64,000 nt of DNA from Gordonia lacunae (GTDB lineage: Bacteria > Actinomycetota > Actinomycetes > Mycobacteriales > Mycobacteriaceae). The first letter of the stretch is position 1; each line of letters opens with the position of its first letter. The notes beneath the pieces were generated by a model that was given only the letters and a program-made list of their open reading frames with translations, searched no databases and was not told the DNA's origin. The stretch spans positions 124,001-188,000 of the forward strand of contig NZ_NGFO01000002.1 of NCBI RefSeq assembly GCF_002149015.1, written 5' to 3'. Positions 37,753 to 47,657 of this stretch are shown in pieces. Position numbers and translations under genes: made by a program.

Positions 37753-38949
37753 TCACAACCCTCGCGCATACGGTGCGGCGTAGCCGGTCTTCATCGGCTC
37801 GTCGCCCAACCATGCCGCGAGTTCATCGGCCCGGGCATCGAGTGCCCGACGCGCATCCCGGGACAGCGGCTCCAGCGGGATGATGTCGATGGACGAGTCG
37901 GGGCGGCGATACCAACCGCCGACGATGCGCCCGTCCCACCAGGCGGTCTGACCGCCGTTGCCGACGGAGTCGAAGACCTGCGCGGTGTGGTTGCCGAGAT
38001 AGAAGCCGCGCTCCTTGTAGCCCATGGTGGTCGGGTCCAGTTCGGGCAGGAGCACGGCCTGCGGTTCGACCGGCCCGTCCCCTCCGCCGTCGATACCGGT
38101 GCCGTCGGGTAGATCGTCGGGCAGGACATGACCGACTCCACCGCGTTCCAGGTCGACCCGGACCGTGCCGAGTTCGGCGAGGGCCGCGCGGACCGCGGTC
38201 TTGGTCGAGCCCAGCCACCACACCAGGTCGGTCTCCGTACCGGGTCCGTAGGTTCGCAACCAACGCCGGATCAGCGCGCAGTGGCCGTCGTGGACGCTCA
38301 TCGACGGCAACGTCTCGCCGAGCCAGAGCGGCATCGAGGTCCACGCCGGTCGCGACAGATGCCAGCCCAGCCGATTCGGCCCCCGGACGATCGCCCCCTC
38401 GGCGTCGAGCATGTTCAGCACGCGCGGCCCCATCGGGGCGCGGCCCGCCCACGAGGTACCCGCGCCGTGGGAGATGTAGCCGTCGAGTGCCGGTAGCCGC
38501 TCGCGGAGTTCGGTGGAGGTCAGCGACTCGCCGCCGGCCAGTTCGGCGAGGACTGCCTGCCGGGCGGTCTCGATCCAGCCCTCGGGGTCGTCGAAGTCGG
38601 GACTACGCCGGAGGTCGCGCAGCATGTTGGTGCGTTCGGAGGCAGAGATCCGCGGCCCCAGTGCGCCGATGGACTCGGCCAGGACGTCGCGCGGGAACAC
38701 GAACAGTGTGCGCCGCATCGCGAGGTGCTTGACGAGCGTCCGATCCTCGTAGAGGGCGGTGTCGACGGAGTCGCGGGTGAAACCCGGACCGACGCGGGCC
38801 CACGCGGCCAGATGGACCGTCGACGGAGTGGTGGCGTGCAGACCCACCATGGTGGCGGCCGCCTCCACCGCGTCGGCGGCCCGCGACGAGGCGTCGAGGT
38901 GTGCCCGGCGCATCAGGCGTGCCCGGCGCTGGGCGTCGGTGATCAGCAT
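37753..38949 (-). CDS. HTH_42 winged-helix protein (AlkZ/YcaQ-like)
   Basis: The 398-residue protein belongs to the HTH_42 family: MLITDAQRRARLMRRAHLD start, HLAMRRTLFVFPRDVLAESI, and GYKERGFYLGNHTAQVFDS with the late WWDGRIVGGWYRRPDSSI. Members YcaQ and AlkZ are DNA glycosylases acting on bulky lesions or crosslinks. The catalytic QxQ/QxD segment of those enzymes lies where this protein has VGLHATTPSTVHLAAWAR, so glycosylase activity is doubtful. It ends just 12 bases from the HNH gene end (convergent). The start is the ATG at 38949. Confidence 0.85.
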   Translation of the reverse strand: MLITDAQRRARLMRRAHLDASSRAADAVEAAATMVGLHATTPSTVHLAAWARVGPGFTRDSVDTALYEDRTLVKHLAMRRTLFVFPRDVLAESIGALGPRISASERTNMLRDLRRSPDFDDPEGWIETARQAVLAELAGGESLTSTELRERLPALDGYISHGAGTSWAGRAPMGPRVLNMLDAEGAIVRGPNRLGWHLSRPAWTSMPLWLGETLPSMSVHDGHCALIRRWLRTYGPGTETDLVWWLGSTKTAVRAALAELGTVRVDLERGGVGHVLPDDLPDGTGIDGGGDGPVEPQAVLLPELDPTTMGYKERGFYLGNHTAQVFDSVGNGGQTAWWDGRIVGGWYRRPDSSIDIIPLEPLSRDARRALDARADELAAWLGDEPMKTGYAAPYARGL

Positions 38950-39429
38950 GCAGAGATCGTAGTGAGCCGTGCTGACAAGAGAATGCAACGAGCACGAGGA
39001 GGGGACGCGGGTGCCGGAGACCGCCGACCCCCGTCGACCCGGTGTCCGGCACCCGCGCGGTCGTGTGGGCCGAACGACACACAGCCCCCGACGGGCAGTG
39101 TTCGCGACACTTTCGGTGTGTCCTTCGACCGACGCAACCTGTGCGCTTCCCGACCACCGTCGAGTCGCGCCCCACAAGCAGACCCCACGAACGCGACCCA
39201 CTCCACCCCTGTTCCGGAAACCGGCACATAAACGCAGTTCAAGCGGCTAACGGACTATCCGGACCGGACAGAACCAGGTCCGGATCCGGCGGCCGGACCG
39301 CCGCCGGGAGCGGCGACGCGGGCCCGAGATGTGGCCGTCGCCACATCGGGTCGTCGATGGTGGCGCGGTGGGTTCGGCTACCGCATGATGGTGCGGTCGA
39401 ACTGTCGGGGCGAGCATGGGAACAGCTGA
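38950..39429. other. Long divergent intergenic region before the nSTAND gene
   Basis: These 480 bases separate the divergent HTH_42 and nSTAND genes and carry no ORF I trust. A perfect inverted repeat GATGTGGC-CGTC-GCCACATC at 39328-39347 lies 82 bases before the nSTAND start and could be an operator or hairpin. A CCGGATCCGG palindrome sits at about 39280-39290. No riboswitch or RNA motif was recognised. Confidence 0.45.
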
Positions 39430-42400
39430 GTGGATTTCGGAGAGGCACTCGCGCGACTGTTCGTGCAAGCCGGCCGTCCCACACTGCGGGCCTCCGCGTC
39501 CCGAGCTCGGGTGTCGGCACAACGGATCAGCGACTGGCGAAACGGCCGGCATCTCCCCCGGGACTTCGCGACCGTCGAACCGCTGCTCGTCTGGCTGACC
39601 GCGCGCGCCGTCGCCGCCGGGGCCGAGGATGTCCTGACCATCCCGCAGTGGCGCGAGATGTGGGACCGGCGGACGCCCGAGGAGACCACCGGGGCCCAGC
39701 CGTCCGCGACGCAGCACGCGCGCCCGTTCGCCGGACTGGCCACCCTCACCGCAGCCGACAGTCAGATGTACTTCGGCCGGGACGACGTCGTCGGCACCCT
39801 GGTCGACGCGATCCTGGCGGCGCGCACGGGCCCGCCCCCGCTGGCCCCCGCGTCTCGGCTCGTCGTGGTCACCGGGGTGTCGGGATCCGGTAAATCCTCG
39901 CTGCTGCGGGCCGGCCTGGCCCGGGACGCCCGGTTGCCCTCGCCCCGACTCGGCGAGATCACGCCGGACGGTCTCGTCATCGCGGAGCCGGCGGTTCCGG
40001 AGGCCACCGAGGCAGCCGAAGTCCCCGGGCCCCCGACCGAGGACGCGGTCATCGTCATCGACCAGTTCGAGAACGTCTTCTCCCTCGAGGACTCGCTCCG
40101 CGCCGAGACGCTGCGCCAGGTCGAGGAACTCGCGTCCGACACGGTCGTCGTGGTCGGCGTGCGAGCCGACTTCTTCAGCCAGTGCGTCGAGCACCCGTTC
40201 CTCGCCGACGCCTGGCAGCACCGCTGCGTGATCGTCTCGGAGATGACCCGCACGCAGTTGCGCGAGGTCATCACCGCGCCTGTCCGGCTCGCCGGCGGCC
40301 GGATCGAGACCGGACTCGCCGACGTGATGATCACCGAGCTGTACGAGGCATCGACGGGCGGCGACCGGGCCGGCCGCCTGCCCTTGCTGGCGCACGTCCT
40401 GCAGGCGACCTGGGCACGACGCAGCGGCAACCGGATGACCCTCTCCGGTTACCGGGCCACCGGCGGCATCGCCCGCGCCGTCGCCGACACGGCCGAGGCC
40501 GCCTGGGCGGCGATCGATCCGCGGCACCGGGACCTGGCGCGGGCGGTGCTGCTCGCCCTCGTGCACGTCGGTCCGGCCGGCATCGCGCTGCGCGTGCCGC
40601 TGTCCACGGTGACCATCGCGAACCGGTTCCCGCCCGAGGTCTCCACCGTCATCGACGAGTTCGCCCAGGCCAGGCTGCTCACCGTGTCCACCGACTCGGT
40701 GATGCTCGTGCACGATGTCGTGCTGACCGCGTGGCCACGTCTGGCCGAGTGGATCGCCGACGATACGGACAACCACCTGTGGCGCCAGCAGGTCGACGCC
40801 GACAGCGCGGCCTGGCTGGCCAACGGCCGGGGCCGGTCATTCCTCTACACCGGATCGCGCCTCGACGACGCCAAGCGGCGCCGGCGAGCCCTCCGCAGTG
40901 ACTATCTCCACCTGCTGAGCAGGGAGAACGACGCGTTTCTCGACGCCGCGGTCGCCATGCAGCAGCGGCGACGCCTGACCCGGCTCGGTGCGGTGTCGGT
41001 CATCGTGGTGCTGGCCATCGCGGCGTCGATCACCGCGGCGATCGGGTTCCGCCAGGCGCACGACCTCCGGCAGCAGCGCAACGCCGCCGAACGATCGGCG
41101 CTGCTGTCCCACATCGACAGCATGCAGTACTCCAACCCGTCCCTGGCGGCGCGGCTGTTGCTCATCGCGCATCAGATCTATCCCGACGACCCGACCGTCG
41201 AGAGCCGGTTGCGCGGGGCCGCGACGACGCCCCTCGTGACTCCGCTGACCGGACACACCGGCCCGGTCTACGACCTCTCCTTCGACCGGACGGGCACCCG
41301 GCTCGCGTCGGCGAGCGGCGACCGGACCGTACGCGTCTGGACGCGGTCGGGTTCGTCGGACTATCGGGAGACCGCCGTCCTGCGCGGCTTCGGCAACTAC
41401 GTGACCAGCACCGATTTCCACCCCACCCGACAGTTGCTGGCGAGCAGCAGCGGAGACGGCTCGGTCCGCATGTGGGATCTCACCGACGTGTCGAACCCCC
41501 GGCTGGCGACGACGCTGTCCCCCGGACACGGCACGGTCTACATGGTGCGATTCGCCGCCGACGGCCGCACGCTGGCCGCGTCGTCGGACGACGGCACGAT
41601 CACCGTCTACGCGGTCTCCCCGGCCGGATCGATCCGGGAGACCGCCGTGCTGCGCGGGCACACGGCCGCGGCGCGGACCCTGTCCTTCAGCCCCGACGGA
41701 CGCGTCCTCGCCAGCGGTGGCGACGACCGCACCGTCCGACTGTGGACGACCGGCGACGCACCGCAACCGCTGGGTCCACCGCTCACCGGTTTCCCGAGCA
41801 TCACCCATGCCGTCGCCTTCAGCCCCGACAGTCGCTCGCTGGCGGTCACCGGCGACAGCCCCAACACCCAACTGTGGGATGTCGCCGACCCGCGTGCACC
41901 CCGCCCGCTGAGCACGTCCCTGCCCAACAGCACCGCGGGCTCGTGGTCCATCGGCTTCGACGGTTCGGGTTCGCAGCTGGCCTCCGCCCGGGCGGACGGT
42001 CTCGTGCGGGTGTGGAACACCGCGAACCCCGGTTCGCCGACGCTGCAGTGGGCGCTGCAGACCACCTCCGAGCAGGGCTCGGTCCGGACCTTCGCCGCCC
42101 GGTTCGACCCCAGTGGCGAACAGCTCGTGTCCGGCCGGTCGGACGGGACCATCGACGTCTGGAGCCTGCCCGGCCGGACCGAACCCGACCGCGGCGGAAC
42201 GATCACCGGACTGGACACCGATGCCGCGCACCGAGTTCTGGCGACGGTCGGCTCCGACACGACGCTGAACCTGTGGACGACGTCGGGCGGCCTCACCCTG
42301 CGCTCACGAACGCCCATCCAGCGCCGCGTCAACGACCACCCGCGCGTCAGCCTCAACGGCCCCGGCACCCTGGCTGCCACGGCGAACAACAACGGTGGGC

Positions 42401-43218
42401 TCGTCGAGATCTGGGACATCGCCGACACCGCGGCCCCGCGCCGCGCCGCGGCCCTCGACCTCGCCACCCGCTATTCGTTCCCGGTCGTCTTCGCGCCGGC
42501 GGGGAACCTGCTCGCGACCGGCGACACCGACACCACCGTGGCCCTCTGGGACACCTCGGTGCCCGGCTCCCCGCGCCGGGTGGGTGCACCGCTGCGCGGA
42601 CCGACCGACCTCATCCGCAACGCCGCCTTCAGCCCCGACGGCACGCGGCTCGCGCTGACCTCCGACGACAAACGCGTCTATCTGTACGACCTCACGTCGT
42701 CGAGTCCGGACCCGGTCGACGTCGTCACCGTCGCGGCGCCGGTGGCGCAGGCCGCGTTCGACGACGACGGCGATGTGCTGGTGGTCGCCTCCCGCGACCT
42801 CACCACCTGGCGACTGCCACCGATCGGCACGGACGCCGAACCGGAACTCCTCGACCGGTACGAGGACATGTTCGCGTCGACGGTGTCGGTGGCACCGAAC
42901 CGGCTCGCGGTGGGCACCGCCACGCACGAACTGATCAGCTTCGCGCTCGGCGACGACGGCCGGCTCACCGATCGGCAACCGGTCGGGACACTGCTCGCCA
43001 CCACCGACACCACGACCACCTGGCAACTGCCGGCCGAGCTCCCGTCCGACGACGAGATCATCGCCGGTGGCGACACGACCGGGAACGTCTACCGGCACAC
43101 GCTCGATCTCGCCGTGGCCCGCGACTGGATCTGCGCGAGCACCGCGCCCCTCACCGACGCCCAGCGCGACGCCTATCTCCCGCACGTCGACGTCCGAGCG
43201 AACTGCCGTCGGGACTGA
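39430..43218 (+). CDS. HTH-nSTAND ATPase with membrane helix and WD40 repeats
   Basis: The 1262-residue protein has an N-terminal XRE-like helix-turn-helix (about 5-55, with RASASRARVSAQRISDWRNG) and an nSTAND NTPase with Walker A GVSGSGKSSLLRAG (149-162) and Walker B VIVIDQFENVF (about 207-217). A single membrane helix at about 518-540 follows, and then WD40 blades from about 610 to the end (repeats like RLASASGDRTVRVWTRSG). Such proteins couple a sensing propeller to ATPase switching, and some STANDs are anti-phage. The start is the GTG at 39430. It stands alone on its strand with a long upstream region. Function unknown. Confidence 0.9.
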   Translation: MDFGEALARLFVQAGRPTLRASASRARVSAQRISDWRNGRHLPRDFATVEPLLVWLTARAVAAGAEDVLTIPQWREMWDRRTPEETTGAQPSATQHARPFAGLATLTAADSQMYFGRDDVVGTLVDAILAARTGPPPLAPASRLVVVTGVSGSGKSSLLRAGLARDARLPSPRLGEITPDGLVIAEPAVPEATEAAEVPGPPTEDAVIVIDQFENVFSLEDSLRAETLRQVEELASDTVVVVGVRADFFSQCVEHPFLADAWQHRCVIVSEMTRTQLREVITAPVRLAGGRIETGLADVMITELYEASTGGDRAGRLPLLAHVLQATWARRSGNRMTLSGYRATGGIARAVADTAEAAWAAIDPRHRDLARAVLLALVHVGPAGIALRVPLSTVTIANRFPPEVSTVIDEFAQARLLTVSTDSVMLVHDVVLTAWPRLAEWIADDTDNHLWRQQVDADSAAWLANGRGRSFLYTGSRLDDAKRRRRALRSDYLHLLSRENDAFLDAAVAMQQRRRLTRLGAVSVIVVLAIAASITAAIGFRQAHDLRQQRNAAERSALLSHIDSMQYSNPSLAARLLLIAHQIYPDDPTVESRLRGAATTPLVTPLTGHTGPVYDLSFDRTGTRLASASGDRTVRVWTRSGSSDYRETAVLRGFGNYVTSTDFHPTRQLLASSSGDGSVRMWDLTDVSNPRLATTLSPGHGTVYMVRFAADGRTLAASSDDGTITVYAVSPAGSIRETAVLRGHTAAARTLSFSPDGRVLASGGDDRTVRLWTTGDAPQPLGPPLTGFPSITHAVAFSPDSRSLAVTGDSPNTQLWDVADPRAPRPLSTSLPNSTAGSWSIGFDGSGSQLASARADGLVRVWNTANPGSPTLQWALQTTSEQGSVRTFAARFDPSGEQLVSGRSDGTIDVWSLPGRTEPDRGGTITGLDTDAAHRVLATVGSDTTLNLWTTSGGLTLRSRTPIQRRVNDHPRVSLNGPGTLAATANNNGGLVEIWDIADTAAPRRAAALDLATRYSFPVVFAPAGNLLATGDTDTTVALWDTSVPGSPRRVGAPLRGPTDLIRNAAFSPDGTRLALTSDDKRVYLYDLTSSSPDPVDVVTVAAPVAQAAFDDDGDVLVVASRDLTTWRLPPIGTDAEPELLDRYEDMFASTVSVAPNRLAVGTATHELISFALGDDGRLTDRQPVGTLLATTDTTTTWQLPAELPSDDEIIAGGDTTGNVYRHTLDLAVARDWICASTAPLTDAQRDAYLPHVDVRANCRRD

Positions 43219-45043: not shown

Positions 45044-45397
45044 ATGGAGCTACTACGCAACGTCGTAATCTTCCTGCACATCATCGGCTTCGCGGTCACC
45101 TTCGGCGCCTGGGTCACCCAGCTCGCGGCGCGCGAGTTCCGCGTCACCCGCGTGATGGACTACGGGATTCTGCTCTCCCTGCTCACCGGACTCGCGCTCG
45201 CGGCGCCGTGGCCGGCCGGAATCGACCTGAACTACCCCAAGATCGGCATCAAACTGGTGATCCTGGTGGTCCTCGGCGCGATCCTCGGCATCGGGAGCGC
45301 GCGGCAGAAGCGCACCGGCGAACCCGTCCTGCGTCCCCTCTTCTGGGCCGTCGGTGCCTTGTCCCTGCTCGCCGCGGGCCTCGCGGTCATCTGGTAG
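45044..45397 (+). CDS. Small four-helix membrane protein, hypothetical
   Basis: The 117-residue membrane protein has segments at about 7-25, 38-55 (YGILLSLLTGLALAA), 68-85 (GIKLVILVVLGAILGIG) and 97-115. There are short charged loops and an early His (FLHIIGFAVTF). It resembles small actinobacterial membrane proteins of unknown role. It is followed by a perfect hairpin terminator and the convergent tRNA-Thr. Confidence 0.75.
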   Translation: MELLRNVVIFLHIIGFAVTFGAWVTQLAAREFRVTRVMDYGILLSLLTGLALAAPWPAGIDLNYPKIGIKLVILVVLGAILGIGSARQKRTGEPVLRPLFWAVGALSLLAAGLAVIW

Positions 45398-45463: not shown

Positions 45464-45538
45464 TGGAGCCCCCTGTCGGGATTGAACCGACGACCGCTCG
45501 CTTACAAGGCGAGTGCTCTACCACTGAGCTAAGGAGGC
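45464..45538 (-). tRNA. tRNA-Thr (anticodon TGT)
   Basis: Read on the minus strand, the cloverleaf is complete: acceptor GCCTCCT/AGGGGGC (one G-T pair), D-stem GCTC/GAGC, anticodon stem CTCGC/GCGAG with loop CTTGTAA (anticodon TGT, reading ACA/ACG codons), and T-stem GTCGG/CCGAC with loop TTCAATC. The discriminator is T and CCA is encoded. It is followed by a strong hairpin. No integrase or second attachment copy is seen nearby, so it is not used as an integration site here. Confidence 0.95.
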
Positions 45539-45605
45539 GCGCGAGCGAGTATATCCGCCGGACCGCCGTCCACGTCATCGGCACCCGACCGGCCGGGCCG
45601 CCGGA

Positions 45606-45992
45606 TCAGCCCCGGATCGCGGCGACCGCTTCGATCTCCACCAGCTGGTCGTCGTAGGCGAGGACCGAGACGCCCAGCAGGCTGCCGGCGGGCCTGTGGT
45701 CGCCGAAGGCCTCGGTCACCGCGTCCCACGCGACCACCAGATCGGCCTGCAGGTGTTCGGCGACGAACACGGTCACCTTGGCGACGTCGCGCAGCGTCGC
45801 GCCGGACTCGATCAGCGCGGCCTCCAGGTTCTTCATGCACTGCACGGCCTGCTCGCGGACGTTCCCGGGGGCGACGGTCGCGCCGTCGGCGTCGATGGGC
45901 GCCGCGCCGGCGGTGAAGACGAGACTTCCGGGACTCACCGTGGCGCTACGGGTGTGGCCGTCTCGAGGACCGTTGATCTGCACGGAGGACAT
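45606..45992 (-). CDS. Rid family protein (YjgF/YER057c/UK114), non-RidA subgroup
   Basis: The 128-residue protein has the fold's conserved start MSSVQINGPRDGHTRSATVS, the central CMKNLEAALIESGATLRDVAKVTVFV, and the end QLVEIEAVAAIRG. True RidA enzymes, which destroy the 2-aminoacrylate made from serine and threonine by dehydratases, need an Arg in the PARSxV stretch. Here that place reads RPAGSLLGVSVL, with Gly for Arg. So imine-deaminase activity is unlikely and it should be called only Rid-family. Its neighbours are a tRNA-Thr and a threonine exporter. Confidence 0.88.
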   Translation of the reverse strand: MSSVQINGPRDGHTRSATVSPGSLVFTAGAAPIDADGATVAPGNVREQAVQCMKNLEAALIESGATLRDVAKVTVFVAEHLQADLVVAWDAVTEAFGDHRPAGSLLGVSVLAYDDQLVEIEAVAAIRG

Positions 45993-46080
45993 GCCGCGAT
46001 CGTAGACGAGCGGCCTCGGTCGCGACCGCCGCCGACTCCTCCGCGCACCCTGCCGGTGCCGCCCGGACCGCGGAGGTGTA

Positions 46081-46155
46081 TCCAGTCTCCTGTCAGGGTT
46101 GAACCGGCCGGGTGTCGGTTACCCCGCGAGCACTCCACCACCGACCCGAGGAGGC
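46081..46155 (-). pseudogene. Decayed tRNA-Thr (GGT anticodon) remnant
   Basis: Read on the minus strand, this aligns without gaps to tRNA-Thr(TGT) at 45464-45538 with about 49 of 76 matches. The acceptor strand GCCTCCT, the anticodon loop GGGGTAA (anticodon GGT, a threonine anticodon), and the T-loop TTCAACC are kept. Pairing is broken once each in the acceptor, D and T stems and at both ends of the anticodon stem, and the CCA end reads GGA. It is thus a pseudogene. The plus-strand copy of its acceptor (GAGGAGG, 46148-46154) is the SD of thrE, 6 bases before its GTG. Confidence 0.7.
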
Positions 46156-46160
46156 CTTGC

Positions 46161-47657
46161 GTGCGCGAACAGATCGGCCGTGTCCTGCGTCGGCTCAGCG
46201 GCAGCCGGCAGGCGACGATCGACACCATCGAACCCGGCAGCATCATGGTGTCGCCGCGCAAGCCGATCGAACCGTTCGACGTCGCGGCCATCACCGAGGT
46301 ACTCGACCTCGCCACCAAGATCGGCGCCGTGCTGCTCGACTCGGGCACGGGAGCCATCGACACCCAGACCCAGATCAAGTTCGTCGCCGGTGTGTACGGC
46401 CTCGAGGACGTCGACGTCGACGTCACCTACAACACGATCGTGGTCAGCGCCCGGCGCGGCGCGACACTCCCGCCCATCACGACCATGGAGCAGGTCTACT
46501 ACCGCTCGATGGACTTCACCCGGCTCGCCCAGGTCGACCGCCTCGTCCGCCGCATCCGCGATTCGTTCATCAGCCCGTCCACGGCGCACCAGATGGTCGA
46601 CGAGATCATCACGGCACCCCACCCCTATCCGCACTGGCTGGCCACGACCGCCTGGGGGATGATGGCGTCGGGCATCGCGGTCCTGCTCGGTGGTGAGTAC
46701 CTCGTCGCCGCGCTCGCCTTCTTGACCACCGTGGTGACGGTCACCGTGAACCGCTGGCTCAACCGCATCGGAACCCCCGTCTTCTTCCAGCAGCTCACCG
46801 GCGGTTTCATCGCGGTCGTCCCGGCCGCCCTCGTCTTCGCCGCCGCCGAACGGCTCGGCGTCCAGATCGCGCCGTCGCAGGTCATCGCGGCCGGCATCGT
46901 CGTGCTGCTGTCCGGACTGTCGCTGGTCGGCTCGGTCCAGGACGCGATCACCGGCGCACCCATCACCGGGGTGGCCCGCTTCTTCGAGTTGCTCCTGATG
47001 ACCGGTGGCATCATCGCCGGCGTCGGTGTCGCGATCCGGATCCTGGAGGCGGGAGGCATCTTCCTCCCGACCATCACCACGACGACCAGCTTCGAGGTCG
47101 TCGAACTCCCGATCCGCGTGGTCGCGGGCGCGGTGGCCGCCTGCGCCTACGCGCTGGCCAGCTACGCCGAGACCCGGGCCCTCAGCGTGGCATTCCTCGG
47201 CGGCTTCATCGGTACCGCCGTGGCGGCCGCGTCGACGTTCACCGACATCGGCGACGTCATCGCCAACGGACTGGCGGCGGCTTTCGTCGGACTGATCGGC
47301 GGTCTGCTCGCACGCCGTGCGCTGACGCCCCCGCTGGTCGTCGCCGTGGCCGGCATCACCCCGCTGCTGCCCGGTCTCGCGGTCTATCGGGGCCTGTACG
47401 GCATCCTCGGCGACCAGACCCTCGACGGGTTCACCTGGATCGCGAACGCGTTGGCCATCGGTTGCGCGCTCGCCGCGGGCGTCACGCTGGGCGAGTTCGT
47501 CGCCCGGTCGCTGCGTCGGCCCCAGCTGCCACCCCGCCCGGACTGGCGACTCCGCCGCCGGATCGCCCTGCGCGAGGACCGCGAGGCGCGTCAGGCGCAC
47601 GCCGCCGCGCGCCGGGCCCGCGCGAACCGATGGCGCCCGCCACCACCACGGCGCTGA
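46161..47657 (+). CDS. thrE: Threonine/serine exporter ThrE
   Basis: The 498-residue ThrE-family membrane protein has an N-terminal cytoplasmic domain (to about 165, LDLATKIGAVLLDSGTGAID, VDVTYNTIVVSARRG). About 10 membrane helices follow, including FFQQLTGGFIAVVPAALVF and LVVAVAGITPLLPGLAVYRG, motifs shared with Corynebacterium glutamicum ThrE. It exports threonine and serine by proton antiport. The GTG at 46161 is preceded by GAGGAGG; no other start fits. The leader is the antisense of a decayed tRNA-Thr. A basic C-terminal tail (RARANRWRPPPPRR) is cytoplasmic. Confidence 0.94.
   Translation: MREQIGRVLRRLSGSRQATIDTIEPGSIMVSPRKPIEPFDVAAITEVLDLATKIGAVLLDSGTGAIDTQTQIKFVAGVYGLEDVDVDVTYNTIVVSARRGATLPPITTMEQVYYRSMDFTRLAQVDRLVRRIRDSFISPSTAHQMVDEIITAPHPYPHWLATTAWGMMASGIAVLLGGEYLVAALAFLTTVVTVTVNRWLNRIGTPVFFQQLTGGFIAVVPAALVFAAAERLGVQIAPSQVIAAGIVVLLSGLSLVGSVQDAITGAPITGVARFFELLLMTGGIIAGVGVAIRILEAGGIFLPTITTTTSFEVVELPIRVVAGAVAACAYALASYAETRALSVAFLGGFIGTAVAAASTFTDIGDVIANGLAAAFVGLIGGLLARRALTPPLVVAVAGITPLLPGLAVYRGLYGILGDQTLDGFTWIANALAIGCALAAGVTLGEFVARSLRRPQLPPRPDWRLRRRIALREDREARQAHAAARRARANRWRPPPPRR

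What the first reader, a model, noticed from the sequence alone, without database searches (positions are those of the whole stretch)
46081..46163. A decayed tRNA-Thr supplies the Shine-Dalgarno of the threonine exporter gene thrE
The sequence directly upstream of thrE, read on the minus strand, aligns without gaps to the tRNA-Thr(TGT) 600 bases away (about 49 of 76 positions). It keeps acceptor strand GCCTCCT, a GGT threonine anticodon and the T-loop, but has broken stems. Its acceptor complement GAGGAGG is the thrE SD, 6 bases before the GTG. A threonine tRNA relic serving as leader of a threonine exporter may be chance reuse, or the leader may pair with tRNA-Thr and sense it.
Basis: partly seen in the sequence, partly recalled or inferred. 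Interest (0 to 1): 0.78.

Follow-up and report, generated by a model that had tools for sequence, protein, structure and literature searches.

The report
Fossil tRNA left before threonine exporter
In most Gordonia bacteria a working threonine tRNA gene lies back-to-back with, and shares bases with, the start of a threonine exporter gene; in this species group the shared unit was copied, each copy lost the half it did not need, and the piece before the exporter is a fossil tRNA whose sequence is once more held constant.

Summary
46081-46155(-) matches tRNA-Thr(TGT) at 51/75 ungapped positions (3,000 shuffles: maximum 40), and its acceptor complement AGGAGG is the thrE Shine-Dalgarno (SD). In 30 of 59 Gordonia genomes, and in four related genera, an INTACT antisense tRNA-Thr(TGT) sits here: its acceptor complement already is the thrE SD, and thrE codons 3-5 (GAG TAT ATC) carry the presumed tRNA -10 box (antisense TATACT). 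The window belongs to a 12-genome clade where this unit exists twice, separated by a foreign-looking RidA gene, and decayed reciprocally: the left copy kept the tRNA plus a ghost of thrE's first ~15-18 codons; the right copy kept thrE, its SD and a decayed tRNA. Among four close species the relic varies at 2/75 sites versus 22/81 in the adjacent spacer and 141/303 thrE fourfold sites, so it is constrained, probably as thrE promoter/leader. Folding buries the SD in a hairpin descended from the acceptor stem (weak support). tRNA sensing is not supported: the 'GGT anticodon' is lost in one of the four, and complementarity has largely decayed in sister species. No transcript data exist; promoters and leader extent are inferred.

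The parts
45464..45538 (-). intact tRNA-Thr(TGT); only full match in the genome (next best matches 77% or less)
   Evidence: ARAGORN; Rfam RF00005 70.2 bits; genome search
45539..45594 (+). ghost of the thrE 5' end: first ~18 codons of a thrE copy, start codon lost here but kept in 8 sister genomes (L035-L042)
   Evidence: 45/56 identical to L051 thrE start, z 8.9; z 6.4-10.6 in all 12 clade members; sequences
45548..45553 (-). presumed -10 box (TATACT) of tRNA-Thr, kept inside the ghost
   Evidence: AGTATA 9-25 nt from the tRNA 5' end in 53/53 Gordonia genomes scored; 0 in 53,904 nt of downstream background
45606..45992 (-). RidA-family gene lying between the two copies; likely xenolog
   Evidence: Pfam PF01042; closest relative outside the clade is in genus g10 (85%), other Gordonia 63% or less; ancestral RidA site is elsewhere
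46081..46155 (-). decayed tRNA-Thr(TGT) copy (the finding)
   Evidence: 51/75 identity, 0 of 3,000 shuffles reach it; orthologous intact tRNA in 30 relatives
46074..46160 (+). constrained thrE upstream/leader element (relic plus short flanks); low variation continues to about thrE codon 30
   Evidence: 2/86 variable sites in four species vs 22/81 in adjacent spacer and 141/303 thrE fourfold sites
46149..46154 (+). thrE Shine-Dalgarno AGGAGG = complement of tRNA acceptor 5' strand
   Evidence: same bases in intact-tRNA relatives
46161..47657 (+). thrE, threonine/serine exporter, GTG start; codons 3-5 (GAA CAG ATC, 46167-46175) have lost the antisense TATACT found in overlap species

Best explanation
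The ancestor of Gordonia and its relatives (Williamsia and genera g7, g10, g16) had a divergent, base-sharing gene pair: an antisense tRNA-Thr(TGT) whose acceptor-stem DNA also encodes the thrE SD, and a thrE start whose codons 3-5 also form the tRNA's -10 box. In one Gordonia clade the shared unit (tRNA plus thrE start) came to exist twice with a RidA gene between the copies, and the copies decayed reciprocally: copy A keeps the tRNA and its -10, with thrE reduced to a ghost; copy B keeps thrE and the SD, with the tRNA decayed and the -10 lost from thrE codons. In the window's subclade the decayed tRNA is now a constrained thrE upstream element, most likely promoter plus 5' leader. SHOWN by sequence: orthology, the two reciprocal remnants, a single origin, low variation of the relic. 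INFERRED: that TATACT is the tRNA promoter, that the relic is transcribed in the thrE leader, and that the SD-burying hairpin matters.
For: Intact antisense tRNA-Thr(TGT) 5-8 nt before thrE in 30/59 Gordonia and 7-39 nt before the aligned thrE start in all g7, g10, g16 and g18 genomes examined. GTATA in the first 21 nt of thrE in 30/30 overlap genomes and 0/29 others; AGTATA 9-25 nt from the tRNA in 53/53; background 0 in 53,904 nt. thrE tree: the 12 relic genomes are one clade (100/100) nested among overlap genomes, whose outgroups also overlap; the six states need the minimum five changes. Reciprocal remnants: relic z 7.2-10.2 in 7 of 12 genomes, ghost thrE z 6.4-10.6 in 12/12, -10 kept in 12/12 ghosts. 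Negative control: no relic in 12 Gordonia where the tRNA is separated from thrE (z -1.8 to 2.5). Constraint: relic 2/75 variable vs spacer 22/81 (p 1e-5) and thrE fourfold 141/303 (p 4e-15).
Against: In five sister genomes (L036, L038-L041) the relic is weak (z 2.5-4.6), so the leader is not needed in this form clade-wide. How the duplication happened (tandem duplication then RidA insertion, or recombination with an incoming RidA fragment) is unresolved; no breakpoints were found. The low variation could in part reflect a recombination tract shared by four species, since early thrE codons are also unusually uniform (2/17 fourfold sites vary). Leader folding is not more stable than shuffles in the window clade (z 0.3 to -1.8), and SD burial exceeds neutral simulations only at p about 0.05-0.11 per lineage. 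The consensus promoter scan found no promoter upstream of thrE.
Confidence: 0.87

Rival explanations
1. The relic is inert debris: only the SD is selected, and the rest resembles tRNA because decay is young.
For: In L036 and L038-L041 most tRNA likeness is gone while the SD remains.
Against: In the window subclade the relic has 2/75 variable sites where thrE fourfold sites vary at 141/303 and the adjacent spacer at 22/81; young decay cannot explain fewer changes than the neighbouring neutral sites. A recent shared recombination tract could, and is not excluded.
Confidence: 0.12
2. The leader senses tRNA-Thr by base pairing and so tunes the threonine exporter to tRNA-Thr levels.
For: Antisense tRNA-Thr upstream of the threonine exporter in most sampled genera of the family; the leader is more complementary to tRNA-Thr(TGT) (duplex z -6.4) than to the other tRNAs tested; the region is constrained.
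Against: Complementarity is inherited by descent; it is fading in sister species; the anticodon base differs in L033; no T-box or other Rfam leader is found.
Confidence: 0.04
3. The SD sits in a self-made hairpin (GUCUCCU/AGGAGGC plus new inner helices) that limits thrE translation, exapted from the acceptor stem. This is a refinement of the best explanation rather than an alternative to it.
For: SD unpaired probability 0.00-0.01 in L031-L035 (0.20 in L037) and 9.4-10.8 kcal/mol to open it in those six; the mRNA strand pairs 7/7 while the tRNA strand has a C.A mismatch; in L037 the outer G-C pair became A-U on both sides (sequences).
Against: Not beyond shuffles for total energy; neutral simulation p 0.045-0.11 per lineage; not present in L042, L036 or L038-L041.
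Confidence: 0.35
4. The region codes an N-terminal extension of ThrE (the thrE frame is open upstream), and its conservation is protein-level.
For: The thrE frame is open from 45696.
Against: A 1-nt indel between relic and GTG in L033 shifts the frame; a strong SD and start codon are kept through nearly the whole genus.
Confidence: 0.02

Closest known systems
Divergent (head-to-head) overlapping genes sharing promoter and translation signals
   Same: Two genes on opposite strands share bases; each other's start signals lie inside the partner.
   Different: Here one partner is a tRNA gene: its acceptor-stem DNA is the other gene's SD, and its presumed -10 lies in the partner's codons. No description of this pair was found in five text searches of the held open-access library.
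Duplication-degeneration-complementation (subfunctionalisation)
   Same: A unit with two functions is duplicated and the copies lose complementary functions.
   Different: The two functions are two overlapping genes (tRNA and protein), not two activities of one gene.
T-box leaders and tRNA-like mRNA leaders (e.g. E. coli thrS operator; from general knowledge)
   Same: tRNA-related sequence in the region before a gene of the same amino acid.
   Different: Here the mRNA carries the complement of a tRNA; no T-box hit; no evidence of tRNA or synthetase binding.

Membership tests
Functional tRNA gene (RF00005) | covariance-model or ARAGORN score at threshold | tested here: not met
   No ARAGORN or gathering-score hit and no tRNA hit at E up to 10 at 46081-46155
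tRNA pseudogene/relic | significant similarity to a tRNA gene plus orthologous intact tRNA at the same site in relatives | tested here: met
   51/75, 0 of 3,000 shuffles; 30 orthologous intact genes
T-box leader | T-box motif and specifier hairpin (Rfam T-box family) | tested here: not met
   No Rfam T-box hit at gathering score in the window or at E up to 10 in 45990-46260
Duplication-degeneration-complementation | two copies in one genome with complementary losses, derived from a two-function ancestor | tested here: met
   ghost thrE plus tRNA relic in the same 12-genome clade nested in overlap genomes
Overlapping divergent gene pair | start signals of each gene lie in the other's transcribed or coding sequence | tested here: inconclusive
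   SD lies in tRNA DNA and AGTATA in thrE codons; that AGTATA is the tRNA -10 rests on conservation, not on mapped transcripts
ThrE exporter | Pfam ThrE domains above the curated cut-off | tested here: met

The most novel reading that the evidence does not exclude
The decayed antisense tRNA has become a new cis-regulatory leader RNA of thrE (an SD-burying hairpin built from a former acceptor stem, frozen by selection), and in overlap species thrE and tRNA-Thr expression are mutually coupled through shared DNA, giving a direct link between tRNA-Thr transcription and threonine export.
Probability: 0.25. Interest if true: 0.8.

Novelty: new variant of a known kind. Interest (0 to 1): 0.6.

Why it matters
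It is a clean natural experiment in how two overlapping genes come apart. One tree shows the overlapped ancestor, a duplication, complementary losses, and a fossil tRNA that is again under strong constraint. It indicates that a tRNA gene can carry another gene's ribosome-binding site, and that protein codons can apparently carry a tRNA promoter, through the lifetime of several genera. The first residues of ThrE (VREYI) in these species are probably set by a tRNA promoter, and the locus offers a testable case of tRNA sequence turned into an mRNA leader.

Tried and rejected
Other tRNA sources for the relic: Thr(GGT), Arg and the other tRNAs tested score lower. A still-working tRNA: no tool hit. 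A relic also in the 12 Gordonia where the tRNA lies 80-186 nt from thrE: first suspected from L069 (TGGAGC...ACCACTGAGAGGAGGC), rejected by shuffles (z -1.8 to 2.5); it then served as a negative control. N-terminal extension of ThrE: rejected by the L033 indel. tRNA sensing: see rivals. Locating the thrE promoter: the consensus scan finds none upstream and conserved islands left of the tRNA in overlap species are group-specific, so no promoter is claimed. Reconstructing the duplication event: RidA in other Gordonia sits at an ancestral site corresponding to the gap between 37753-39201(-) and 39430-43218(+) and the window's RidA resembles genus g10, but breakpoints were not resolved. Five literature searches found no prior description; a sixth was malformed.

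Full report
OBSERVATION. The region 46081-46155, read on the minus strand, matches the intact tRNA-Thr(TGT) at 45464-45538 at 51 of 75 ungapped positions. The next best place in the whole window scores 38, and 3,000 dinucleotide shuffles of the 261-nt region reach at most 40. It is not a tRNA any more: ARAGORN and Rfam find only the intact gene, and a permissive Rfam scan shows nothing but a chance hit. The complement of its acceptor 5' strand, AGGAGG (46149-46154), is the SD of a thrE gene that starts GTG at 46161.

COMPARATIVE EVIDENCE. thrE was found in all 59 held genomes of the genus, which is Gordonia by named records. Reading upstream of each: in 30 genomes an intact antisense tRNA-Thr(TGT) ends 5-8 nt before thrE, so the tRNA acceptor complement AGGAGGC is the thrE SD. 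In these 30, and in none of the other 29, thrE codons near the start contain GTATA (GAG TAT ATC), which read antisense is TATACT. The same AGTATA lies 9-25 nt from the tRNA 5' end in all 53 genomes scored with the tRNA near thrE, and it does not occur once in 53,904 nt of downstream sequence. It is therefore the likely -10 box of the tRNA, and in the overlap species it is also ThrE residues E-Y-I. The arrangement is older than the genus: the genomes examined of g7, g10, g16 and g18 have it too (g18 matches named Williamsia maris by sequence). Other genera mostly keep tRNA-Thr(TGT) antisense and upstream but about 90-680 nt away. A thrE tree needs only the minimum five changes to explain all states and puts the relic clade, one origin, among overlap genomes.

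THE WINDOW CLADE. In 12 genomes the intact tRNA lies about 600-640 nt from thrE with a RidA gene between. The sequence to the right of that tRNA is a ghost of the thrE start: for example L035 reads GTGCGTGCGCGAGTATATCGACCGCGCA...CTCACCGGCACC, and the window reads GCGCGAGCGAGTATATCCGCCGGACC...GTCATCGGCACC; ghost alignments to overlap relatives have z 6.4-10.6 in all 12. The sequence before the working thrE is a tRNA relic, clear in seven genomes (z 7.2-10.2) and faint in five (z 2.5-4.6). The working thrE has lost TATACT from its codons (window GAA CAG ATC), while all 12 ghosts keep it. Each copy has thus lost what the other kept. The RidA gene resembles genus g10 (85%) more than other Gordonia (63% or less) and is missing from its ancestral site, so its arrival may be linked to the duplication; how is not known.

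THE RELIC TODAY. Among L031-L034, which differ at 23-31% of thrE fourfold sites pairwise, the relic varies at 2 of 75 sites. The adjacent spacer varies at 22/81, thrE fourfold sites at 141/303, and even the intact tRNA at 6/75. One of the two relic changes hits the third base of the so-called GGT anticodon (46121; L033 reads GGC). So the relic is constrained, but not as a threonine tRNA. The low variation continues through about thrE codon 30 (2/17 fourfold sites), which fits an mRNA element around the start, though a shared recombination tract is not excluded.

MECHANISM. The most economical reading is that the relic holds the thrE promoter and/or 5' leader. On the mRNA strand it folds with GUCUCCU paired to the SD AGGAGGC, 7 of 7 pairs, while the tRNA strand has a C.A mismatch; the intact tRNA has the opposite asymmetry (a G.U on its own strand, C.A on the mRNA strand). 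In L037 the outermost G-C pair has become A-U on both sides. Opening the SD costs 9.4-10.8 kcal/mol in L031-L035 and L037. These hints are weak: overall folding is no better than shuffles in the window clade, and neutral simulations reach the observed SD burial in 4.5-11% of runs. Sensing of tRNA-Thr is not supported: the complementarity is that of descent and is fading in sister species.

NOVELTY AND LIMITS. Five searches of the held open-access papers found no report of this gene pair; subscription papers are not held. No transcript data were available, so every statement about promoters and leaders is inference. The tree is of one gene, thrE.

Noticed in passing
window 45606-45992 (RidA); ancestral site between 37753-39201(-) and 39430-43218(+): RidA-family gene closest to genus g10 (85%) rather than other Gordonia (63% or less); the ancestral Gordonia RidA locus a few kb upstream is absent here, suggesting replacement by a xenolog.
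   Followed up: partly
L057 and L058, about 75-190 nt upstream of thrE: The 3' end of the tRNA-Thr complement (GGAGCCCCC...GGAGGCGGGTTCTT) is tandemly repeated, unit about 28 nt, next to the intact tRNA.
   Followed up: no
L071 (G052), just right of the tRNA-Thr: A short extra copy of the tRNA end (CCACTGAGGAGGCGT) lies between the tRNA and its AGTATA box, pushing the box away from the tRNA.
   Followed up: no
family-wide: tRNA-Thr(TGT) stays antisense and upstream of the threonine exporter across many genera of the family, even when about 90-680 nt apart; g30 has it in sense orientation.
   Followed up: partly
window 45044-45397 (+): 117-aa hydrophobic protein without a Pfam match next to the intact tRNA-Thr; no match in the ten non-relic Gordonia neighbourhoods tested.
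   Followed up: no
G041 C1:2616143-2617644: thrE match is in two overlapping pieces in different frames, a possible frameshift or assembly error.
   Followed up: no
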